Source: Argopecten irradians (taxonomy: Eukaryota > Mollusca > Bivalvia > Pectinida > Pectinidae). From it: a stretch of DNA of 64,000 bases. How positions within the stretch are numbered: the first letter of the stretch is position 1; each line of letters opens with the position of its first letter. The notes under the pieces are model-generated. The model saw only the letters and a program-made list of their open reading frames with translations, was not told where the DNA came from and searched no databases. This document shows positions 5,770 through 62,597 of this stretch, piece after piece. The stretch is taken from assembly GCF_041381155.1 (NCBI RefSeq), contig NC_091137.1, positions 21,807,655-21,871,654 on the forward strand, given 5' to 3'. The position numbers and the translations under genes are program-made.

Positions 5770-7680
5770 TGGGGGCTAAACTATGTAGCCCGCCCCAAGC
5801 CCAAGCTTTTAAACCCGAGTTTGAGCTTCGGCTATTTTCGTTTTTCTACTCAACAATAGCACATATTAAAACAATTTTTGACACAACAATTCTTTGTGTT
5901 ATGTTTTATCTTTCTAAGTAAGTTACATTTCTTGAAATTAATCTGAATTTCATAAATCGACCTTTATCACTTTTCAAAGGGCTAAACCATGTAGACCACA
6001 ACGAGTGTGACATTTCTTGATTTTTCCAAAATATTAAAATATTATGTTTTTTTGACAAGAATTGCTGTTATTCAAAATACATCATAAAGGTATACATTCA
6101 ACATAAATATCCAATTATTTCATAACAAATTCCGCCTTTTTTAGTAATTGCGTTGACAAGTACCTGTCTCGCCGATCTCTCTGTTTACCTGAGCCGAGCC
6201 TGAACTATGGGCAGACAACTCCCCGAACCCGAGCTTTTTTAATAAATGTACCTGTAGAATGCACACGTTAGTATTACAATATTGTATAATGTAATTAATG
6301 TAAAAGCAATCTATATGTTATATTAATATTTGAGCATTAATTAAATGACACTTAGTACAAAACTTAACAAAATTCAAAAGAAAATTAATTAGATAATTAA
6401 AATGTGGTCTTGCTTTTTTCACATACCTTAATTCCCTATTTGATGTAGATCGTTTTCTTTCATACCTACATGTGTAATACTGGCTGGTCTAGGGCAATAC
6501 ACTCATGTCCCCTGAGGCTGTATTGCATGGCTACTCATGCAATAAAGCCTTGTGACATCACAGCGTCAACAAAATCTCTATTTCCTTGGTAAAATTTTTA
6601 TTTCTTTTTTCACAAAATTGACTGGCTATACTATAAAAGATGCAAGCAATGGGATTTGTGTTGAAAATATCACGTTATTTTTCATGTATGGAAAATTGAC
6701 TTCCAGTCGTGGATTTCTTGGAATTTATTTCAAAATGGCAGGATATTATGTAGTTGTAAAATTGCATTGAAACGTTGAGGTATGAAAGAAAAATACTCTT
6801 TCATAAGTGGATAGGAAGGATAGGGATATTCTACCCTCGGGATCACAAAATGTTGTAAAACCCTTGGCAAGCCTTGGGTTTTACTACATCTTCCTGAGTG
6901 GTGTTTCCATCATAATCATAGGCCTGCGTGATACTGTAGAAGTTACACTGGAAGCTACACTGTAGGATACGGCAGACTTTTTCACATTTTGAAGTCGAAA
7001 ATGTAAAATGTTTATCGTCGCACAACGGACGACAGACGACGGACAACGATGGACAAAAGGCATTTAGAATTAGGTCACAATGAGACTTTGTCTCAGGTGA
7101 CCTAAAAAATCTTGGGATCGGAAAGTTGCCTACCCTTAGCTTAGGCTCGGCTCGGGTGAACAGTGAGATCGGCAAGACAGGTACTTGTTAACGGGGTTAC
7201 CAAAAAAGACGAATTTGTTATAAATTGATATTTATGTTGAAATTTATACTTATCAGACCAGCTATGTATACTTGCTGTTTGGATTAAAATTATTCATCTC
7301 AAAAAAGCATAGATTTCAAACAATTTAGAAAAATCGCAAAATGTCGCGCTCGATTGTGGTAAAGGTATTTAGCACGCTGGGAAGTCAAAGACCCACTATA
7401 AAGTTAGACTAATATATAGAGATATTAGTCTATAGTGGGTCTTTGACTTCCCAGCAGGCTAAATACCTATGACTGTAGGTTACATGGTTTTGCCCCTTGA
7501 AAAGAGATAATGGTCTATTTATGAAATCCATATTAATTTCAAGAAATATAAATAGTATGTATAGCTAACAAATAACTCAAAGATTCTTTGTGCCAACAAT
7601 TATTTTAATACCTGCTATTTTGGAGGATAACAACACAAAGCTCGGCTCAGGGCTGACTACATGATATGCTTCATGGCCAT
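5770..7680. mobile_element. Long inverted-repeat (foldback) DNA element, non-autonomous
   Basis: The left arm (about 5770-6215) and right arm (about 7133-7680) are diverged reverse complements. Paired landmarks are ACAAGTACCTGTCT with its complement near 7180, CAACATAAATATC near 6100 with its complement near 7230, TTTCATAAAT near 5950 with ATTTATGAAA near 7515, and GGGCTAAACCATG near 5980 with CATGGTTTTGCCCC near 7482. No transposase-like frame is visible in the middle. A smaller hairpin element sits inside the right arm. The outer ends are uncertain by tens of bases. Confidence 0.65.
7364..7467. mobile_element. MITE-like hairpin inside the foldback element
   Basis: Near-perfect inverted repeat of about 40 bp: GGTATTTAGCACGCTGGGAA at the left, pairing with TTCCCAGCAGGCTAAATACC at the right, around a short AT-rich loop. 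The left arm of the surrounding foldback element lacks it at the matching place (about 5990), so it inserted later. A related half-copy (TATTTAGCACGCTGGTAGG) lies at about 36710. Confidence 0.75.
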
Positions 7681-16781: not shown

Positions 16782-17061
16782 ATACAACATTTAAGAAAAA
16801 TGCTTAATTCAGTGTATTTTTATGTTTATCGATACAAAGTTGACATTTGCCAAATTGATTTTAATCGTGATTTTTTTATGTACGACAAGACAAAAGAGAT
16901 CCGTCATTTTTGATGATATTCCATTTACACTTCCATCCCTGTTGAATGTGTGTCCGTCTTTTAAATTGTCTATTAGGCGATGAAATGAGTCTTGCCAGGT
17001 TTGCTGTTTCGTAATGTTTAAAGTCTCTCAAATATCTGATTTGATGCCATTTCCTTACAGG

Positions 17062-19185
17062 ATGTTTTCGTTACTGGTATTGGTGACTGTAGTGGGCCAT
17101 GCCCTAGCAGCTAACACCACCCGCCATCACCAACATGTCCACCATCAGCACACTCACGCAGCAACAACACCACCACCACCAACCCCAGACCCGAGGTCGG
17201 ACAAAGCCAGAATCCAGCAACTAGAGGAACAGCTAGAGTCCCTGACCAGACAGGTGATGCTCCAGCAGCTTTTCGTTGAAGAGCGTATCAGATCGGATGG
17301 TGACTCCGGAATTAAACAGCTGCGTCACAACCACGACGGAACTGCTCCGTATTTCACCTCTTCCTTCTCTAGTAGGTCTATCAACTCCATCCATGACCAT
17401 TCTAACTATGACCGTACTGTAGGTATGGGGGAGGTTATTGCTGTGATGAACGGTGTCGAATTTCGCACACGGCACAATGACTACAAGCTTAAAATGCCGA
17501 GTAAAACCAGCACGGATTACCATGCCATACAGGACATCCCTTTCCCCGAGGTACCCCCATCAGTCTTACAAAAACATACCATCGCTGAACAAATCGCTGA
17601 GATGAAGGAGTATTTCAAAGCTTTCCGTTACCAAAATCACCGTCACAGAGATTACAGGCCCTATTTCAAAGCTAACCTTTGCTACATGGAAGGAGCATGG
17701 ACAACCGACACCAAGGAACTAAATGAGCCTTTCCAGAGCGACCGGCATTCGATCGACGCGTCCAGTTGGTTCGATCTGCAAGAAAAGATCCGCTACACGT
17801 CCTACTCAGGATCAAAGCATAACCTGGAAAATTTCTCATATCTTCCCTCGACTATCATTAACGTGAACAACGGAACTGCAGAGTATGCACAGTGGAACTA
17901 CAGGATCCTTTGCCACCCAATAGAGGACGACTTTCCGCTGTCAGCGCTCGCACCTGTTGACGATCTGTCCGCCAGACTGTCACATAACTTCGACATGAAG
18001 ACGTTTGCCAATAGCCGAGCAGCTCGCTTTAAGGTGGCCCAAAGGGCTAAAGACGGAATTTACGATTTCGATCTTGGCTATGGCCAGTTTAAAGATAAAC
18101 AATACAATATGGGTCTCCTTGATAGAATTATGATGCAAATTCCGGGTAAGAATAATTACGGAGCCGACCTTAAAGACCACTCATTTAACATGACCGTCTT
18201 AGACGTCAGAGACCCTGTAAACAATACGGCACTCAACACCGCCTACTACCACCGCTTCTTTAAATACGACAGCAAAGGAGCTATGGGAATCAAGACAATT
18301 CATAGAGGCTTTGCCGATCAAAATCTATTCGTCGCTCAAACAACCCAACCCAAAGTTGCGAAAATCCAAATTGATGACTGTCATACCAAACGTCACGTTA
18401 AAGAGTGTCATCATTACGCGGCCCAATATTCCTATGCTATTCCGCTCGAGATTGTGTTCATGACGCCACTTTACAGATGGAATCCGTATAATCTACGTGA
18501 ATACGGGCACAACATTCACTCAGACATCATCACTGAACACATGAAGAGGAATGGTCAACTCACAGCCGATAAAGCATATAATGGTACCAACAGCAAATAC
18601 TTCTACAAGACGCCCGCAGAATTTTTCAGAGCATCCAAACCAGGTGAGACTGACAAAGCAGATACCGATAAAGGAGCTGTAGGTGTTTTGGACAGACAAG
18701 GAAATGTCCGAAAGGTGGTTGCATCAGGTACTCATATCACTCTTCCAGAAATAGAAGGAGTAGGCAAACTGAGGATGCGATATCCAATCACTCCTGTGCA
18801 TATGGATGGAAGTGCTGAAGGAAAGGAGTTATCCGCTGTTGTCGAAATGATCAATCACATGTCCAAGTATTCGTCTTACTTTGTTGAGCCACCCACCGCT
18901 ACTTCCTCCGTCCACACAAGCCTCCCCGACGGCCACTTCGCCACCTCCTACACACACCAAGACCCACCAGGCTTCCACAGGCACGAGATCTATATCTCCC
19001 ACGACGAGATGAGCAGTCTAGCCTCCGGTAACATCGTGTCTGTATTCACTTCTACCGATCAGGGACATGAGCATACCATCGATATGGGCTACAACAGCAC
19101 CACAGGAAAGTACTACATCCAGACTTGCGACGGACGGCCACATTGCTGGGACGGTCACGACAATGATATCATTAAAATTGCATAA
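17062..19185 (+). CDS. Secreted histidine-rich protein with C-terminal HxH motifs, function unknown
   Basis: One 707-codon frame. The start is placed at the ATG at 17062, right after a strong acceptor (CCATTTCCTTACAG), rather than the in-frame ATG at 17014, because 17062 opens a textbook signal peptide (MFSLLVLVTVVGHALA). A spliced 5' UTR exon is therefore likely upstream. Order: signal peptide; His-rich stretch (HHQHVHHQHTH) and PPP linker; short coiled coil (RIQQLEEQLESLTRQ); a long globular body with about six cysteines and several N-glycosylation sites (NTT, NFS, NGT, NMT, NST); and a C-terminal segment HRHEIYISHDEM...SGNIVSVF...GHEHTID...CDGRPHCWDG. That segment resembles the HxH...S.edl..L..G..v.v....GHxHt pattern seen in many extracellular bacterial proteins, which suggests metal binding (inference). 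The whole coding part is intronless and less AT-rich than its surroundings. It is not a family I can name. An extrapallial, shell-matrix or plasma role is only a guess. Confidence 0.9.
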   Translation: MFSLLVLVTVVGHALAANTTRHHQHVHHQHTHAATTPPPPTPDPRSDKARIQQLEEQLESLTRQVMLQQLFVEERIRSDGDSGIKQLRHNHDGTAPYFTSSFSSRSINSIHDHSNYDRTVGMGEVIAVMNGVEFRTRHNDYKLKMPSKTSTDYHAIQDIPFPEVPPSVLQKHTIAEQIAEMKEYFKAFRYQNHRHRDYRPYFKANLCYMEGAWTTDTKELNEPFQSDRHSIDASSWFDLQEKIRYTSYSGSKHNLENFSYLPSTIINVNNGTAEYAQWNYRILCHPIEDDFPLSALAPVDDLSARLSHNFDMKTFANSRAARFKVAQRAKDGIYDFDLGYGQFKDKQYNMGLLDRIMMQIPGKNNYGADLKDHSFNMTVLDVRDPVNNTALNTAYYHRFFKYDSKGAMGIKTIHRGFADQNLFVAQTTQPKVAKIQIDDCHTKRHVKECHHYAAQYSYAIPLEIVFMTPLYRWNPYNLREYGHNIHSDIITEHMKRNGQLTADKAYNGTNSKYFYKTPAEFFRASKPGETDKADTDKGAVGVLDRQGNVRKVVASGTHITLPEIEGVGKLRMRYPITPVHMDGSAEGKELSAVVEMINHMSKYSSYFVEPPTATSSVHTSLPDGHFATSYTHQDPPGFHRHEIYISHDEMSSLASGNIVSVFTSTDQGHEHTIDMGYNSTTGKYYIQTCDGRPHCWDGHDNDIIKIA

Positions 19186-21190: not shown

Positions 21191-22580
21191 CCATATAACA
21201 GTTATGATCTGTGAGTAAAATGACTTCATGTAACAGTTATACTTTGTGAGTAAAACGACTCCATATATCAGTTATGCTCTGTGAGTAAAACGCCTTCATG
21301 TAACAGTTATGTTCTGTGAGTAAAGTGACTCCATATATAACAGTTATGTTCTGTGGTAAAACGCCTTCATGTAACAGTTATGTTCTGTGAGTAAAGTGAC
21401 TCCATATATAACAGTTATGTTCTGTAAGTAAAGTGACTCCATATAACAGTTATGTTCTGTAAGTAAAGTGACTCCATATATAACAGTTATGTTCTGTAAG
21501 TAAAGTGACTCCATATATAACAGTTATGTTCTGTAAGTAAAGTGACTCCATATATAACAGTTATGTTCTGTAAGTAAAGTGACTCCATATATAACAGTTA
21601 TGTTCTGTAAGTAAAGTGACTCCATATATAACAGTTATGTTCTGTAAGTAAAGTGACTCCATATAACAGTTATGTTCTGTAAGTAAAGTGACTCCATATA
21701 ACAGTTATGTTCTGTAAGTAAAGTGACTCCATATATAACAGTTATGTTCTGTAAGTAAAGTGACTCCTATATAACAGTTATGTTCTGTAAGTAAAGTGAC
21801 TCCATATAACAGTATAGTTATGTTCTGTAAGTAAAGTGACTCCATATAACAGTTATGTTCTGTAAGTAAAGTGACTCCATATATAACAGTTATGTTCTGT
21901 AAGTAAAGTGACTCCTATAACAGTTATGTTCTGTAAGTAAAGTGACTCCATAAACAGTTAAGTAAAGTGACTCCCATATATAACAGTTATGTTCTGTAAG
22001 TAAAGTGACTCCATATAACAGTTATGTTCTGTAAGTAAAGTGACTCCATATAACAGTTATGTTCTGTAAGTAAAGTGACTCCAATAACAGTTATGTTCTG
22101 TAAGTAAAGTGACTCCATATAACAGTTATGTTCTGTAAGTAAAGTGACTCCATATATAACAGTTATGTTCTGTAAGTAAAGTGACTCCATATAACAGTTA
22201 TGTTCTGTAAGTAAAGTGACTCCATATAACAGTTATGTTCTGTCTGTAAGTAAAGTGACTCCATATATAACAGTTATGTTCTGTAAGTAAAGTGACTCCA
22301 TATATAACAGTTATGTTCTGTAAGTAAAGTGACTCCATATAACAGTTATGTTCTGTAAGTAAAGTGACTCCATATATAACAGTTATGTTCTGTAAGTAAA
22401 GTGAATCCATATAACAGTTATGTTCTGTAAGTAAAGTGACTCCATATATAACAGTTATGTTCTGTAAGTAAAGTGAATCCATATAACAGTTATGTTCTGT
22501 AAGTAAAGTGAATCCATATAACAGTTATGTTATGTAAGTAAAGTGACTACATATAACGGTTATACTCTGTGAGTAAATAA
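21190..22580. repeat. 35/37-bp minisatellite array
   Basis: About 38 copies of a unit containing ATAACAGTTATGTTCTGTAA and GTAAAGTGACTCC. Two length classes alternate, CCATATAAC (35 bp) and CCATATATAAC (37 bp), differing by one TA. The first copies (21190-21360) are diverged (GTGAGTAAAACGCCTTCATG), and the last two drift again. The tandem frames read on the minus strand (YGVTLLTEHNC repeats) are not genes. Confidence 0.97.
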
Positions 22581-52920: not shown

Positions 52921-55900
52921 ATGGATGGAGAGTTAATTTGCAATTACAAGAAGTGTAGAAAGAGACTTAATTCATTTGCTTGGGTAAGTACACAGACATT
53001 TAGTCAATTTTAGATTTAGTATCGCCTTTGATATTTGACCATTTTATAATAACCTATTCATAAATTGTATACATGTAGATCAAGAGATTGTGGACACTTT
53101 TTTGGGACCTTTCATTTTACCAAACTTAAATAATATGTCTACTGTAGAGTGTCAACCTACAAAAATATTAACATAGGTAGCTAAAGGTTAGATGTCTGGG
53201 CAGCGGAAAAATGTCAATTCCATATGTATGATATAATTTTTCAATTATAGTAGAGGAAATTTAAAAAAAAATGCAATAGTTAAAATAAAATCTCTTGGAA
53301 GATGTAATTAATGAATTATGAATCATCATTATCTATTGTGACTGTTGTAGGTGACATCTTGTTCACGTATCCTTTTGCAATCATAAGACAGATTGAGCGT
53401 TGGAATGATAGACACAGGCATATGATGTTCATCAATTCATTTGTGAAGTATACATATGTGCTTTTCCATTTTCGAATGTCATCACATGAACTTTTTATGC
53501 TTGCTAATTAAACATTGTAGTAGGAAATTCATTGAATCAAATTGATGAACTGAAACCTTAATCAATAATTTTGCAGTTGTGCCTGTAAACAACTTTTAAT
53601 TTGTAGATCTTTTCTGATTTTATGAGTTTGTTTTGTGAAGTTATGAGCAAACATCACAGGTTTACTCAGCACAATTACCTGACTCGTAAGACAATTTAAA
53701 TATATAGAGCAAGTTACTGGTTTATGTACATGTAAAGGAAAATATTTGACAGGAACAGAAAAAGTATGATATATTTGCATGGCAGATACACCTTGACAAA
53801 GGTTCTTAGATATTTTCTGTGATGATGATGGTGGACGAGAGTTCAACAAATCCTACACCTGTCCAGCTTGTAAGTAGTTTTTTTTATATAATCAATGCTG
53901 TGATAGCATGTGGTGTTTCTTAGCTTTTAGGACAATAAATCTATGTACCGATTAATTTTTATGTATACAGTATAATCTAAATCATAATTGTATACCCCAG
54001 TATATATCATAAATATTAAATTAAAACCAAATCTGAAAAAGTTCTTACACAATGTTAACCTACAAAATGTACATAAACTACAGGTTTCAGCTTTTACTTT
54101 CGCCTTTTTTCTCTCAAGATATATAAAAACCTAGATACTTTTACTTTTCACATTTTGAATTTATATTTTCAATGAAATATTGCAGACAGTCACACTAAAT
54201 AACTTTTTGACCATATCAATGTATGTATTAAAGATCATTCGTTTAACTAAGATACATTAATTCACCAGCTAGCTTATAAAGGGCATACATAATTCAGATT
54301 ATTAAAGGAAGTCAAAATTCCACCGTTATCTGTTGTTTTTTTCCAGGTGAAAATACACTATCAGGGAAATTTGATATCATCAGAATAGACCTTCAGCCTA
54401 ATGAACAGTATAGATCAGTAAGTGTTCATTGATAAATGGTATCACAAAGGAGAAGGTACGTTAGGACTCGAATATGGCCCCAAAATTAATTCTCCAGTAA
54501 AGAACAACATATTTTGCCATATAACAGTTGAATACATTTGCTAACACATTGCATCTCAAAAATATCCCGCATGTGCCAATTTTGTTCACTATGACGTCAT
54601 CAACATGCAGTTTCCCGCCATTTTTCACAAAAATCCTTGAAAAATCATACTTTTTGAGTGGTTTTCTCTAAAAATGAATGTGGCCGCCTTCGTGGAGCAG
54701 AAAGAGATTTTCACACGTTGTGTATCGTATATTTACGCATATCCATGCAAAATATAAAGTTGCTCCAAGGTGGCGGCCAAATCCATTTCAAGCCTTTTCT
54801 AACCTAAAGATGATGAATTTCTACCAAAATTTGGCGAGAAGAGGAAAATCGCCAATTTGATGACGTCATAGGTGGAGCACATCGTGTACATGGTTATAAA
54901 AAGTTAATTTTTGATGAATGGCAAGTATGAGAGTATTTATTGATGTGGATCAGAGTTAATATTTTTCGGCCTGAAAAATTAAGGCCAAATACTGGTCCTA
55001 TCATATCTACTCCTTTAGCCACCTTTTCCATTTTGCTGTTACTCATTTGTAGGTTCCAAATTAATTCCAACACAAGTTTATAATGTCAGGGTGATGTTAT
55101 GTTACCAAATCTTATTGATTTTTTATTCAATATATTCTGTCAAAGTCCACTGTTTAATATTTACATACGTATATACATATGTTTATTTATGTGGTCATAA
55201 TTGCAGTTGTACATGTACATTTTGTATTGTATTTGTCTCCTTGGGATACTGTTAATCTGATGTTTATTACAAAAATGAATTTACCAAAGCATACTCTCAC
55301 AGTCAAATATTCACTTCATTCTAGAAATGACAGGGATATATCTCAACTAATGCCTCAACCTGTCTAGAGTTAGGAGAGTACCAGGTGTGATTCTCAGTCA
55401 CATTTCATCTTCTGCTAACTTATTGTACATTTCCAGTGTTAAATTATCCACTACAGTTATCTGTGTACCTAATCAAAGTAACAAATATCTATGCTTATTT
55501 TGTAATGATATTGGTATAAATAACATGTGATTCATTTATAAAGATGGTGTTGGCTGGACAGAAACCAGAAACCATTATGGAGATATGTACAAGAGCCTTG
55601 TCATTCTGGACATATCAGGTAAGGGGTTATTTTTAATGATATTTATGATAAATATCTGGTGTGTCCAGTTCATTTAAAAAAAAAAAAATTTCCTGACACT
55701 CCAAGTGAAGAGTTAGTTGATACAATGTCTGGATGCTTTAATTTACTCTAAGAAAAAAAAAAGAAAAATTCGATACTATACATAGTATCTATGGCAACAG
55801 TATGATATATGTCTTAGCAACATGAGGTATTGCCTATCTGGGAACATCAGATAAATAGTTAATGCCTTAACCTTAATTAGCGCCCCTTCCCTCTTCTAGA

Positions 55901-57331
55901 GAAAGAGTTGAAGTTATATAAATGCTCCCATTCCATGAATTTAATAATGTTTTGCAATTTGTGATGCTTATAACATCAGCATTGTATCCCATGACATATT
56001 ATATGAGTCTTTAAGATGTGAATCACAACATAATATTAAATGTAGAATGTCAAAAGGAAGAAGGCATATACTATGTTTACTGTGACAGCTTAAAGTGAGT
56101 TGAAATATGGCTGACATGTTTTTGAGGTTTTTTTTATCTACAACTTACATTTTGGTTCCTTATTGATAAGTACCCTATTTGTTACATTTTTAACCCAAAG
56201 GGCTGGTGAGCTTATGTCATGGGGCGGCGTTCCTCCGTCGTCCGTCAATTTTTCACAAAAATCCCTACTAGTCATAAATGGCTGAATTGATTTAGACCAT
56301 ATTTGGTCTGAAGATTCCATGGGTGAAGGGGAACTGATTTTAAATAAACGGTGGGTCTGGTCCCTCAGGGGCCTGAGGACAGGGCCCAATAGGGGAAATA
56401 TAACAACTTCTTAAAAATCCTTCTTATTCTGTAGAATGAATGGATTTTATTCTAATTTGGTCTGACGTTTCTTTGGAAGAAGGTGAACCAATTTTGAATA
56501 AATGGTAGGTCTGGTCCTCCAGGGACGGGGCCCAATAGGGGAAATATAGCAAATTCTTTAAAATCCTTCTTCTGTAGGATTGAAAGGATTGATTTCTAAT
56601 TTAGTCTGAAGCTTCATTGGGTGAAGAGGAACCAATTTTGTATAAATGGTGGGGCTGGTCCCCCAGGGGCCAGAGGGGCCGGACCCTATAGGGAAAATAT
56701 AGCAAAATCTTAAAAATCCTTCTGTTATATATATATATTGTAAATATATTAAGTTCAAATCTAAAACCTTTAAGTTGGTAGCTTGTGTTCTTAGTCTGAA
56801 ACAGGTGAGTGCTACAGGCTCAATGGTCCTCTTGTTTAAGCTCCTGGGGTGCAATTATGGGGAATATGGTACTGACTTTTTTCTTATTAATATTGGGCAA
56901 TTGAAAATGCACAGGCAACATGAGGGTTGTGGACTTTTTCAGGGCAATAGGTCATTGAGGTTAATGCTTGACTATTCACAGACAGCATGAGGGTGGTGGA
57001 CTATTTCAGGGCAATATGTGGTTAAGGTTTGACAATTCACTGGCAACATGGTTATTGAACGTTTAATTAAGGTAACACTAGGTAAAGAGTTAATTATCAA
57101 ATGCTACAAACATTGTTCGGATTTCATTAGTTACCAAGTACTCTTCCATTAGTGGTTGTTTATTTGGTATCGAGAAGTCATGCTCCAAGTAACTCCATTG
57201 ACTATGTATACTGTAGGCTCACCAAGAGAGGACCTACCAGGAATATGTGGCTTCAAAAGCCAAGGAAAGAGCCGTCCAGCTGGAACAATACTATGAACAA
57301 ATAGTATCACACACACAGAGGGAACTCACTT
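52921..57331 (+). CDS. CCNB1IP1: CCNB1IP1 (HEI10) RING-finger ligase, 5' six exons, incomplete
   Basis: Exons: 52921-52983, 53351-53366 (only 16 nt), 53810-53869, 54347-54417, 55544-55618, 57217-57331. All have GT/AG borders and consistent phase, giving 133 residues. RING finger: CNYKKC, SCSHIFC, CPAC. Then TLSGKFDIIRIDLQPNEQYR, MVLAGQKPETIMEICTRALS, FWTYQAHQERTYQEY and the start of the coiled coil. Human CCNB1IP1 has the same order (CNYRKC, ACSHIFC, CPAC, TLSGKLDIVRTELSP, MVLAGLRPE, FWTYQVHQERLYQEY). In the family it is a meiotic RING ligase that marks and stabilises crossovers. The remaining coiled coil and tail are not found to 64000. A possible 13-nt exon 7 lies at 57543-57555. The gene either continues beyond the window, making the two minus-strand genes nested, or is truncated. 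Confidence 0.92.
54463..54999. mobile_element. About 537-bp TIR element in CCNB1IP1 intron 4
   Basis: AGGACTCGAATATGGCCCCA at the left and TTAAGGCCAAATACTGGTCCT (last 20 bases) at the right are imperfect inverted repeats. Inside, two TGACGTCAT-type motifs and paired GTGGCCGCC/GGCGGCCA strings add a second inverted layer. No transposase. Confidence 0.6.
56140..56720. repeat. Tandem repeat of about 130-165 bp in CCNB1IP1 intron 5
   Basis: Three to four copies built on GGTCTGAAGATTCCATGGGT, GGTGGGTCTGGTCCCTCAGG, GGCCCAATAGGGGAAATATA and AAATCCTTCTT. Same general class as the GGGGGCAGAGGGGCGGGGC repeats at 62600-63670. Confidence 0.8.
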
Positions 57332-57542
57332 GTATCCTTGAACTGATTAATAAGTGGTTTGGAAGTTGTGATTTTATATAGCGGATGTAGTTATCCTTTT
57401 TACCATTGCCCAAGTTACATTTTGTTGTTGAAACGACCGTTCCATCACAGTGCATACTCAACATAAAATGTACCAATCCAATGCTATATTATATTTTTTT
57501 TACCACAATTGCAAGTTGATGTGTAATTTTGTTTTTCCAAAG

Positions 57543-57555: not shown

Positions 57556-57682
57556 GTGAGTATAACATGTTAAGTAAGTAATCAGAAGAAAAAAACCTGA
57601 AATAGTTTTCAGAAATAATAACTTGGTTAATAGTCTACCCTGTGGAACAGAACGTTAGGAAAATAGCATCCAAAATTTTTAC

Positions 57683-58469
57683 CTTCTTGGTAACAATCAT
57701 CAAAGCTATCATCTTCTTCATGATATACAAACTCGATCTCAAAGTTATCGTCCCCATCAGATTTGTCCTCCTCCTCCTCCTCCATTACTGGTAATTCTTG
57801 TCTTCCTCCCGAGTCTGACTTAGTTCTATTCTGACCAGAAGTTTTGGTATTCGATACTTTGTCTCCACACCAAGCACCTCCAGATGCTCCTCTTTTTTCA
57901 CCACCAATGGATCGCGCTTGTATGCCTTTCCTTTTTTTAAACCTTTCAATGAAACCTGATGAACTGGAAAAACCAGGAATTCCTAATTTTTTGGCAATGT
58001 CATTTGCCTTTTGTCGTAACACTGGACCTGAAATTGCTTGTTTAAAGTTCACGCTAGTGCCTTCCATTTTCCGTACCCAATTGTAAAGGGCGTCTTCAAC
58101 GGCAATAAAGTCACCATGTCGCATGCGTTTTCTTGCTGGCGAAAAAGCCCCCGAATCACATGCTGCCATTATTTGCTCTTTCTGTTTCACAATACCCGTC
58201 AGTGTGCTTCCTGTTATTCCGAAATCTTTGGCTATCTCTGTTTTAAGCTTGTCCTTCTTTTCAACTGCTCGGATAATTTCTAGTTTAGTCCCCAAACTTA
58301 AAACTGTCCGTTTTCTTGGTGCTGCAGTTGCAGCAAAGCACATCATCTGAACGTCAAAGTCATCCTGGTCAATATCCTGTGACGATGGCTGGCATTCATT
58401 CATCTGTAACATTGTACTCCCGTATATGGTATCGTCCTTAGATTGTGAATTTTCAGAATGCCCGTCCAT
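57683..58469 (-). CDS. CENP-B/Tigger-type DNA-binding protein without DDE domain (gene 1, first coding exon)
   Basis: Starts at the ATG at 58469; the frame opens slightly upstream without ATG. Reads 262 codons to a donor (CAAGAAG|GTAAAA) and would stop at 57627 if unspliced. Acidic and Ser-rich N-terminus; psq-type helix-turn-helix (about residues 52-105: RKRTVLSLGTKLEIIRAVEK, AKDFGITGSTLTGIVKQK); CENP-B-type second HTH (about 110-185: DALYNWVRKMEG, VLRQKANDIAKKLGIPGF, GFIERFKKRKGI); then, instead of the DDE nuclease of Tigger/pogo transposases, a basic Gly/Ser linker and a strongly acidic tail (EEEEEDKSDGDDNFEIEF). No terminal inverted repeats were seen around it. Most likely a domesticated transposase-derived DNA-binding protein. 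Lies antisense, 130-350 bp beyond the last sure CCNB1IP1 exon. Confidence 0.75.
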
Positions 58470-59446
58470 ATTAATCTGTAAGTCACTAGCCACTGCTCGA
58501 TTTGTTTCTTATAACGGTAGCATCCGGAAAACTGTCAATAGTTTGTATAAAATGGTCTACACGAGAAAACATTCACTACAGACACCACTTGGTTTAGGCC
58601 TGTACTAATAGTACTGGCACACTGTTCATATACAAAATATGAACTCCACAAATGCCACTCCTCTCAGTTATCCTTTAAAACTAACTATATTCCAATGCTC
58701 CGCTTCGAGCCCCTCGTAAGATACGGCCGGTTTAATAAACCCCTTTGTCTGAATCACCACATACACACATACATGTAGCGATTTGTATTCACAACGCTTT
58801 CAGTAAAACGAGTCTATTTATAGAGCGCCTGTGTGTAACAAAGCTTCCCTGTAACGTACTAGGATCAGGTGTATGTGTGCAGCTATATAGCCGACTGCCC
58901 AGGGAAAATCAATAGAGCGTTACTCTTTTATCCGGTTCGTGGTAAACAGGTCGACACTTTAGAGGTTTAAACCAAGTTACACTACACATATATTTAGTTA
59001 CTAGCTAGTACATGTATTTCTAATTAAATTGTGTCATGTCGATATTAATATAATCCCCTGTTTTAACTAGTGATTCAGTTGATCACGAATCTCTTGTATC
59101 TTTAGGGACTCCTATGACTCGTCAGTGATGTAATCATGTTTTGTTTTTAAAGTTTTGATCAATGGAAACATTCGAAAACTTAGTGTATTAACCCGTGTTT
59201 AAACTACTGATATTTTACAAGCCTATAGCTTATGTCACTTCTTACATTTAAATGTACTTAAACATATCCAAGTTGATAAAAGTGTGTATGCATTAAGGCT
59301 AACATTAAGTATTATTATTGACTTGTAAGTTGTGTATTTGTAAATTTTGTTTATATTTACTTGTGCCAGCAGCAGATGGCGGATGCGAATTATATCATTC
59401 TGATATTTTTCTAATAATGTCTAATAGCATATTTGACATTTTCCAT
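58470..59446. other. Region upstream of CENP-B-like gene 1, no other gene seen
   Basis: Presumably holds the promoter and 5' UTR of the minus-strand gene ending at 58469. No long frame, no recognisable element. Confidence 0.4.
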
Positions 59447-59811: not shown

Positions 59812-60053
59812 GTGCTAATTTAAAAACTGTGGTACACTGGTAAAAGAACTTTCTTGGGGTTTAGTTATTGCTAAATAAATATATGATTTCAGATGTATGG
59901 AAGGGATAAAGCAGAACAAAATCTTTTCTTCAAATCACGACCATTGAATGTTTTAAGGTCAACGGTTGTTATAACAACAACGCCAAATTTACAATTTATT
60001 TCGACTCATTAAAAGGTGTTTTTTATTTATCGGTATACATTAATATCACTTAC

Positions 60054-61065
60054 CTGTGTAATCAAGTTTTGTAAAGTCTTCCCTGAAGCTACTGATGTTA
60101 TGTCGATGGCAGAAAGAGGTGATCCATAATGAATCGATGGTTGATTTTGGGACTGCATAAACATCCGCTAAATTCCTCGCCGCATCGGCTACCATTTCCC
60201 TAGTCACAGAAATATTCTTTTCTTTCATTCCGGCGTACCAATCGGATAATGTTTCTTCCAGGTCGTGATGAAGACTTTCGTGTTCGGCTAATCGGCTAAC
60301 TTTGCTCGGAGAGTCTGGTGAGCTCGACTCTATATAGAGTTTCCTTTTCTTTAAAATCTTAGAAACAGTAGTTCTGTCTATGCCAAATATCTGTGCAATT
60401 TCGCCTTGGGTAATTCTAGGACTTTCTTCGGCCATTTTTGATATTTTGCACTTGACTGAATAAGGAATATTCGTTCTTGTGCGTCTCATTGTAAACGACT
60501 GTCGGGAAATTTGACTTGTGTTGTCAAATATCGAGTTCAGATTACCAGACATTTGATTGTCAGTTTCATCATCACATATGTAGAGGTTTCGTTCCTGGTC
60601 TGAAATAGCCGATACACCAAGAACATTTGAATGTTCTATGAGAGACAATTGCGCTGCACCCAAACTAGCAGCACTGTTTGACGGATTTGGAATCATATTC
60701 AGATGAATGTTTGGTGCTCTACTATTACCGGACATTACCAGACTATTCGGTGAGGTACCGCTGGTATTCATCCCTATTTGACTATTAGGGACAGTACTAC
60801 TTCCATGGACTCCCAGTCGGCTACCCGTGGACGTGATGCTTCCTGGCATAACGACACAGGGCATTGAGGAAGGGCTGTGGAACACTAGAGGAGCAGACGA
60901 TTTGGTAATGATCTTTCTGTTTGGAGATGGAGCCACAGAGCTAGGGTTTGTTCGACTGTTGAGGTCCATTGTTGAATTTGCGTTCTGTAGACGACGACTA
61001 TAATCACCATCAGGTCCTAACTGCTGTAGCAGGTTCCTTAGGGTTCTACGTGTGTGCTCGTCCAT
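60054..61065 (-). CDS. CENP-B/Tigger-type DNA-binding protein without DDE domain (gene 2, first coding exon)
   Basis: Start at the ATG at 61065 in a strong context (GCCGGCCATGG); an acceptor (TTTTGTTGACAG) lies just upstream at 61086, so a 5' UTR exon is likely. Reads 337 codons to a consensus donor (ACACAG|GTAAGT); unspliced it would stop at 60046. Long Ser/Asn/Pro-rich N-terminus (about 1-190); psq-like HTH (about 195-245: RRTRTNIPYSVKCKISKMAE, QGEIAQIFGIDRTTVSKILK); CENP-B-type second HTH (about 260-330: LEETLSDWYAGMKEKNISVT, ARNLADVYAVPKSTIDSLW, FCHRHNISSFRED). No DDE domain in sight. Same order of domains and same intron phase (phase 1) as gene 1, but the sequences differ widely, so this is not a recent duplicate. 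Following exon not identified. Confidence 0.75.
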
Positions 61066-61260
61066 GGCCGGCGAAGTCGAAACCACCTGTCAACAAAATA
61101 TAGCATTATTGTATCTGAAACATACATCACAACACAGTTGGACAAGACTACTCAAGTTGATATTTTTTGTCATTGTCACGCGTAAATTACTAGTTACTTC
61201 AGTATTTATAGTTAAATTTTTACCAGATATATTGCTTAGTATAATACTTATCCATTAGAG

Positions 61261-61625: not shown

Positions 61626-62597
61626 GTTTAATACATTTTATTCGTTATCATTTCCAGGAAATGGTTGAGTAAAAGAAGTTTTCAGTTTATTTTGATCCAA
61701 TATATACGCATGACATTTAAATATTTGCCAAAAATTATAATAGCATGTTGCAATGAAAAACAAACAAGCAAACAAAATATGGCCCTACCAATGTAACAAA
61801 AGAATATGAAAAATTGTTTTCAACTTGACGATATCAATATGCTTTTACTTTTTTACTGTACAAAGTATAATGCCACGTTTATTTAATCTACCATATAATT
61901 CCATGTTCAACGTTTAGAACTCAGTATAAGTTGAGGAAAAAAACCCACACATTTGATATTCATATTTGAAATTTGGCTGACGGTTTATTCACACGAAAAG
62001 ATCATCAATGTCTGATAATGATGTGTTTATTTGGATGTTTTGGTGTTTTAATTAGATATTAAATTATTAAAATATATATTCCTTCACTTTTTCATTATAA
62101 TGAAAAACAAATAGCAAATGGTTGGAATGTTTCTTTAATCTTTATTCTATATGCACCTGACCTACCTTGATTTAAGTCAGATTTTAATACCATTTTCTCT
62201 TGTAAAACTATTTCATTTTGATGTGTGAGGCTAAACTCAATACAACAAGTGTTTATTTCTGGGACAATCTTCTATTTGATCTCTCATCAGAATCCCACTC
62301 AAAAATGTCCTATTAGAGGGAAAATACTTACAACTTACAAATTTCATCTGAATTACAATTTATTACAATCACAATACAATGTATTATCGTATTTAGATTG
62401 GTAGATATTGAAATTTGTATTTTGATATAGTCACACTATGAAAAATTTAATTAGCCAATTTCTAAGATTAGTTAATAAGTAAAATTATAGTTCAGTGTTA
62501 AATATCAACGTATTTTTTTAAAATATATTTATGATTATTATTTAAAACCTAAAACTAAAACTCTACTATATAACTTACATATCCACGTCAGTGATAG
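61626..62597. other. Intergenic or intronic AT-rich sequence, no gene seen
   Basis: Searched on the + strand for the missing CCNB1IP1 coiled-coil exons without success. No minus-strand exon recognised. Confidence 0.4.

What the first reader, a model, noticed from the sequence alone, without database searches (positions are those of the whole stretch)
53351..53366. 16-nt microexon inside the CCNB1IP1 RING finger
Exons 1 and 3 cannot be joined without losing the conserved VTSCSH of the RING. The missing residues are exactly encoded by 16 bases (GTGACATCTTGTTCAC) flanked by TTGTAG and GTATCC, restoring frame. Skipping it would shift the frame and remove a zinc ligand pair, making it a possible on/off switch for a meiotic ligase.
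Basis: partly seen in the sequence, partly recalled or inferred. Interest (0 to 1): 0.7.

Follow-up and report, generated by a model that had tools for sequence, protein, structure and literature searches.

The report
Tiny meiosis-gene exon beside minor intron
A 16-letter exon appears to supply six essential residues of a meiotic crossover protein's zinc-binding domain, and the intron that follows it carries the marks of the rare minor spliceosome, so the exon is more likely always used than a simple skip switch.

Summary
Window 53351-53366 joins the first coding exon (52921-52983) to exon 3 (53810-53869) in frame. It gives VTSCSH, aligned to VTACSH of CCNB1IP1/HEI10 (PDB 9ges_A, E=1.8e-25). 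It is the best of 63 phase-correct AG..GT segments in its interval and of 10,086 on both strands of the window. None of 1,500 shuffled intervals reached its score. The exon 1 + exon 3 peptide without it has no Pfam match.

GTATCCTT occurs at 2 of 4,472 GTs on this strand, both at exon ends of this gene. So a U2-type intron precedes the microexon and a U12-type intron follows it.

Skipping to exon 3 would join a major donor to a minor acceptor; in the passages read this happens when minor splicing fails. I favour a constitutive microexon fixed by the U12 donor, with minor-intron retention (stop after 32 aa) the likelier control point. No RNA, ortholog or snRNA evidence was obtained: the genome server answered only.

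The parts
52921..52983 (+). First coding exon of the CCNB1IP1/HEI10 gene (MDGELICNYKKCRKRLNSFAW), ends in phase 0, donor GTAAGT (U2-type). Its true 5' end (5' UTR) is not determined.
   Evidence: tblastn of a human sequence recalled from memory hits 52933-52989, two codons into the donor
52984..53350 (+). Intron 1, U2-type by its donor (GTAAGTACAC ... TGTTGTAG)
53351..53366 (+). 16-nt microexon encoding VTSCS and the first base of the H codon; carries RING residue C25 and part of H27
53367..53375 (+). U12-type 5' splice site GTATCCTTT of intron 2
   Evidence: consensus ATATCCTT in passages of PMC2831892, GT-AG subtype in passages of PMC3584512
53367..53809 (+). Intron 2, predicted minor (U12-type) GT-AG, phase 1; retention gives a stop after 11 residues beyond exon 1
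53791..53797 (+). U12-type branch-site motif CCTTGAC, its A 13 nt before the last intron base
   Evidence: optimum distance 11-13 nt in passages of PMC3584512
53810..53869 (+). Exon 3 (rest of the H codon, IFCDDDGGREFNKSYTCPA, plus one base), donor GTAAGT
54347..54417 (+). Exon 4 (rest of a split C codon, then ENTLSGKFDIIRIDLQPNEQYRS), donor GTAAGT
55544..55618 (+). Exon 5 (MVLAGQKPETIMEICTRALSFWTYQ), donor GTAAGG
57217..57331 (+). Exon 6 (AHQERTYQEYVASKAKERAVQLEQYYEQIVSHTQRELT plus one base), followed by a second U12-like donor
57332..57339 (+). Second U12-like donor GTATCCTT (intron 6, phase 1); its acceptor was not found in the window, so its class is not established

Best explanation
This is the second coding exon of the CCNB1IP1/HEI10 meiotic E3 ligase gene, a 16-nt microexon that supplies VTSCSH of the RING. 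Its upstream intron is removed by the major spliceosome and its downstream intron by the minor (U12-dependent) spliceosome. I infer that the exon is constitutive. The U12 donor, bound by the U11/U12 di-snRNP, marks its 3' end and supports the upstream U2-type acceptor across only 16 nt, by the exon-bridging contact described between U11-59K and U2AF. If the step is regulated, retention or slow removal of the minor intron (truncation after 32 aa) is a likelier off state than skipping (54 aa). Shown: sequence, frame, RING match, splice motifs. Inferred: splicing in vivo, intron class, constitutive use, exon bridging and any regulation.
For: Joined protein matches CCNB1IP1 at 1.8e-25, with VTSCSH over VTACSH. 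RING match only with the microexon. Best of 63, best of 10,086, 0 of 1,500 shuffles. GTATCCTT is at 2 of 4,472 GTs on the + strand, both exon ends of this gene; base composition predicts 3.1e-4 per GT. CCTTRAC with its A 8-21 nt before the end of an AG occurs at 6 of 3,677 AGs, the exon 3 acceptor among them at 13 nt. Introns 2 and 6 are both in phase 1, as minor introns avoid phase 0; the same survey reports relative minor-intron enrichment in molluscs (passages of PMC10639083). U11-59K binding to U2AF and exon bridging in vertebrates: abstract and passages of PMC8034651. In RNU4ATAC patients minor-intron retention rose while cassette exons and microexons did not differ (passage of PMC4667643), which favours retention over skipping.
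Against: No transcript was seen. Minor-spliceosome snRNAs and proteins could not be looked for: the server did not complete (RF00548 repeated, the other two asked once). RTATCCTT as such is at its shuffled frequency in the window (3 on +, 1 on -, mean 2.87 of 100 shuffles), so only its position at exon ends is telling. The pyrimidine content before exon 3 (10 of 18) equals that of introns 4 and 5 (10 of 18 each), so the expected weak tract does not discriminate; the acceptor of the microexon (11 of 18) is likewise not unusual in this gene. Skipping across a U2/U12 pair is not impossible (MAPK12), and skipping was the main aberrant event on minor snRNA inhibition in one study. U12-type introns made up only 0.2% of introns at human zinc-binding exons (passage of PMC10853796). 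The gene after exon 6 was not found in the window.
Confidence: 0.8

Rival explanations
1. One reading: the microexon is a regulated cassette, skipped in somatic tissue to shut off the ligase by frameshift.
For: Skipping does shift the frame and end the protein at 54 aa. Very small exons are in general less efficiently included (passage of PMC10853796).
Against: Exon 1 has a U2-type donor and exon 3 a U12-type branch site, so exon 1 to 3 joining is not the ordinary pairing; in the passages read it goes with failing minor splicing. In a scallop, ccnb1ip1 expression itself was reported specific to testis, with ovary no different from inactive gonad (passages of PMC3774672; soma not covered by those passages), so a splice switch need not be invoked. 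No RNA evidence.
Confidence: 0.08
2. Control by the minor intron: retention of intron 2, or skipping of microexon plus exon 3 (exon 1 to exon 4, both U2-type sites, stop after 34 aa), is used to tune HEI10 dose with minor-spliceosome activity in germ cells.
For: Both outcomes give early stops. Skipping of exons flanking minor introns rises when minor snRNAs are inhibited (passages of PMC8034651); retention rises in RNU4ATAC patients. Zrsr1 mutant mice are reported to have spermatocyte-stage alterations affecting U12 introns (passages of PMC6678158). That HEI10 dose matters for crossover number is recalled.
Against: No transcript evidence; minor introns may simply be spliced slowly without being regulatory.
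Confidence: 0.2
3. The microexon is real but intron 2 is an ordinary U2-type intron that resembles U12 by chance.
For: Only one complete intron could be judged; snRNA genes were not searched.
Against: About 3.1e-4 for the donor times 6 of 3,677 for the branch motif gives roughly 5e-7, and a second donor of the gene has the same motif.
Confidence: 0.05
4. The 16 bases match by chance, and the true VTxCSH exon lies elsewhere or the gene is broken here.
For: The segment is short, and the exons after exon 6 were not found in the window.
Against: 0 of 1,500 shuffles, best of 10,086; the U12-type donor fixes its 3' end independently of the protein match.
Confidence: 0.02

Closest known systems
CCNB1IP1/HEI10 meiotic RING E3 ligase (chain in PDB 9ges)
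   Same: RING and following segment align over residues 4-69, 91.6 bits, VTSCSH over VTACSH.
   Different: The sixth ligand position (recalled RING spacing) reads D where the PDB chain has H (CDDD against CDQH). Exon boundaries of other species could not be compared here.
Exons with a U2-type intron upstream and a U12-type intron downstream (for example MAPK12)
   Same: Same arrangement; the skip would pair a U2 donor with a U12 acceptor (PMC8329584 passages).
   Different: The exon here is only 16 nt. Of the 12 library papers holding both 'microexon' and 'minor intron', I read passages of 5 and saw no such microexon described; the other 7 were seen as listings only.
Neuronal-type regulated microexons
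   Same: Size class: 'typically only 3-15 nucleotides' in PMC13149111 (passage), so 16 nt is at its edge; wider limits are recalled.
   Different: Not a multiple of three, sits in the RING fold, and nothing here indicates tissue regulation.
U11-bound enhancer (USSE) exon definition in SNRNP48 and RNPC3
   Same: U11/U12 bound downstream activates an upstream U2-type acceptor (PMC8329584 passages).
   Different: There the U12-like sites are not used as donors; here a single site is the predicted real donor.

Membership tests
CCNB1IP1/HEI10 | RING followed by the TLSGK...DIxR segment and further conserved exons | tested here: met
   9ges_A E=1.8e-25 and zf-RING_5 33.3 bits; exons 5 and 6 match by tblastn (E 4.9e-7 and 4.4e-5) a human sequence recalled from memory. 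The part after ELT was not found in the window; a coiled coil was not tested.
Microexon | Separate very short exon with its own splice sites, included in mRNA | tested here: inconclusive
   Size, sites, frame and protein match met; inclusion in mRNA not testable.
U12-type (minor) intron, intron 2 | 5' splice site RTATCCTT at +1 to +8 | tested here: met
   GTATCCTT at 53367
U12-type (minor) intron, intron 2 | Branch site CCTTRAC close to the acceptor, optimum 11-13 nt | tested here: met
   CCTTGAC 53791-53797, A 13 nt before the end
U12-type (minor) intron, intron 2 | No distinct polypyrimidine tract | tested here: inconclusive
   10 of 18, same as introns 4 and 5 of the gene
U12-type (minor) intron, intron 2 | Minor snRNAs present in the genome | not tested
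   Asked for but did not complete (only the U11 request was repeated)
U12-type intron, intron 6 | Donor plus branch site and acceptor | tested here: inconclusive
   Donor GTATCCTT at 57332; acceptor not found in the window; downstream DNA could not be fetched (and repeats)
Regulated cassette microexon | Inclusion differs between tissues | not testable with these tools
   No RNA data

The most novel reading that the evidence does not exclude
A dual-spliceosome microexon. A zinc-ligand-bearing piece of a meiotic crossover ligase, too small to be defined by the major spliceosome alone, is defined only by the U12 donor behind it. Functional HEI10 then exists only where minor splicing is active, linking crossover control to minor-spliceosome dose.
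Probability: 0.15. Interest if true: 0.75.

Novelty: new member of a known kind. Interest (0 to 1): 0.42.

Why it matters
Gene finders easily lose 16-nt exons; without this one a key meiotic ligase would look as if it lacked its RING. The U12 donor gives a sequence reason why such an exon could be defined, and ties a crossover protein to the minor spliceosome. This can be tested with gonad RNA-seq and with minor-snRNA knock-down.

Tried and rejected
Second genomic copy of the 16-mer (L002): 2,000 of 3,016 bases read by eye, no RING exon seen, taken as chance. Recursive splicing at the AG|GTGACA start of the microexon was considered from the sequence only: the regenerated donor would be TGG|GTGACA, poor at +5 and +6; set aside without a test. 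Pyrimidine contrast does not discriminate. Acceptor of intron 6: one relaxed branch motif with an AG at 62179 in the window; what follows it stops or shows no similarity by eye, rejected. The tblastn printed only its first 6,000 characters. For human residues after 137 it shows no hit with E below 8.8; one at 8.8 lies at 60173-60265, over the opposite-strand ORF, and I took it as chance. Relatives in viral contigs: 1 pattern match, none confirmed.

Papers: HEI10 + microexon 0. CCNB1IP1 + splice + exon + RING 12, of which passages of one, PMC3774672, were read. CCNB1IP1 + 'minor intron' 1 and CCNB1IP1 + U12 2: two papers in all, passages of PMC9941101 read (CCNB1IP1 only as a snoRNA host), PMC7484663 seen as a listing. 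Searches were wider searches; (bivalve terms) listed 12 papers, none with the word microexons. Ward 2007 (mouse mei4) is not held. Strong and Schimenti 2010 passages name a donor mutation in mei4 but give no exon map. Rice HEI10 passages give no exon map of the RING. One search was malformed (a term with an apostrophe); I read passages of other reviews instead.

Not done because the genome server did not answer: minor snRNAs (RF00548, RF00007, RF00619), a genome-wide search with the human protein, and DNA downstream of the window.

Full report
Observation. The 16 bases GTGACATCTTGTTCAC are at 53351-53366, with TTGTAG before and GTATCC after. The gene model in this window is: exon 1 52921-52983, microexon 53351-53366, exon 3 53810-53869, exon 4 54347-54417, exon 5 55544-55618, exon 6 57217-57331. 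The frame runs through all six and gives 133 residues plus one base. The first 70 residues match the chain named E3 ubiquitin-protein ligase CCNB1IP1 in PDB 9ges at E=1.8e-25, with VTSCSH over VTACSH. Pfam zf-RING_5 scores 33.3 bits against a cut-off of 27.9; the exon 1 + exon 3 skip peptide has no match. A tblastn of a human sequence recalled from memory finds exons 1, 3, 4, 5 and 6 separately but not the microexon (output cut at 6,000 characters).

Chance. Between exons 1 and 3 there are 63 AG..GT segments of up to 90 nt with the right phase, at least 30 nt from either end. The microexon gives the best protein score (235); the next is 207. In 1,500 dinucleotide shuffles of that interval (segments up to 60 nt) the best was 224 and none reached 235. 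Over both strands of the whole window, 10,086 such segments were put in turn between the same two exons; the microexon ranks first (235, next 223). The 16-mer occurs twice in the 846-Mb genome, against 0 for the reversed-pattern control; the other copy showed no RING exons in the part I read.

The donor of the microexon is GTATCCTTT, a U12-type 5' splice site. In the window, 2 of 4,472 GT dinucleotides on the + strand are followed by ATCCTT; they are the donors of the microexon and of exon 6. Base composition predicts 3.1e-4 per GT. The intron after the microexon ends ...CACCTTGACAAAGGTTCTTAG: CCTTGAC with its A 13 nt before the end. Only 6 of 3,677 AGs on this strand have CCTTRAC with the A 8-21 nt before the AG's end, this one included. 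Passages read give ATATCCTT and TCCTTAAC for the first-described U12-type introns (PMC2831892), GT-AG as the commoner subtype and 11-13 nt as the best branch distance (PMC3584512). Introns 2 and 6 are both in phase 1, while minor introns avoid phase 0 (PMC10639083 passages). Against: RTATCCTT as such is at its shuffled frequency in the window (3 on +, 1 on -, mean 2.87), so the evidence lies in its position. The pyrimidine content of the acceptor is no lower than in introns 4 and 5. The acceptor of intron 6 was not found, so its class rests on the donor alone. In humans U12-type introns were only 0.2% of those at zinc-binding exons (PMC10853796 passage), so the arrangement would be unusual.

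Mechanism. A major intron upstream and a minor intron downstream mean that two machines must recognise the microexon. Skipping to exon 3 would join a U2-type donor to a U12-type acceptor. Passages read describe that join for MAPK12 in a cell line with a U12 snRNA mutation (PMC8329584). They also describe skipping of exons flanking minor introns when minor snRNAs are blocked, with U11-59K bound to U2AF as the exon bridge (PMC8034651). In RNU4ATAC patients, by contrast, minor introns were retained while cassette exons and microexons did not differ (PMC4667643 passage). I therefore infer a constitutive exon whose definition depends on the U12 donor, and retention as the commoner failure. The other outcomes computed here all truncate the protein: intron 2 retained, 32 aa; exon 1 to 3, 54 aa; exon 1 to 4, 34 aa (lengths counted from the translations). 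Which of them ever occurs is unknown. Meiotic relevance is plausible. A scallop study reports ccnb1ip1 expression specific to testis, ovary being no different from inactive gonad (PMC3774672 passages). Zrsr1 mutant mice are reported to have spermatocyte-stage alterations affecting U12 introns (PMC6678158 passages).

Known or new. Microexons, minor introns and exons flanked by one intron of each kind are known. In the open library, HEI10 with microexon gave 0 papers. CCNB1IP1 with minor intron or U12 gave two papers in all, one read in passages and not relevant, the other seen as a listing. Microexon with minor intron gave 12 papers, of which I read passages of 5 and saw no such exon described. 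These searches do not cover subscription journals or supplementary tables. I file it as a new member of a known kind.

Limits. There is no RNA, no eukaryotic ortholog DNA and no snRNA search; the genome server answered only.

Noticed in passing
57627-58493, minus strand: Uninterrupted 288-aa ORF (GTG start in the mechanical list) with CENP-B_N (41.5 bits) and HTH_Tnp_Tc5 (41.2 bits) and no other Pfam family at 0.01. It lies just downstream of exon 6, perhaps inside intron 6 of CCNB1IP1.
   Followed up: partly
60046-61086, minus strand: A second uninterrupted ORF (346 aa) with HTH_Tnp_Tc5 (34.9 bits) and a CENP-B_N match below cut-off (19.1 against 21.2): two such ORFs in the same orientation about 1.5 kb apart.
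   Followed up: partly
57332: Exon 6 ends with a second U12-like donor (GTATCCTTG); the partner exon was not found in the window.
   Followed up: partly
17014-19185, plus strand: 723-aa ORF with a His-rich segment near its start, no Pfam match at 0.01.
   Followed up: no
about 21480-22514, minus strand: Repeated short peptide similarity (SLYLQNIT) in the tblastn output suggests a tandem repeat.
   Followed up: no
exon 3, residue 33 of the joined protein: The sixth zinc-ligand position (recalled RING spacing) reads D (CDDD) where the PDB chain has H (CDQH); whether D binds zinc here is unknown.
   Followed up: no
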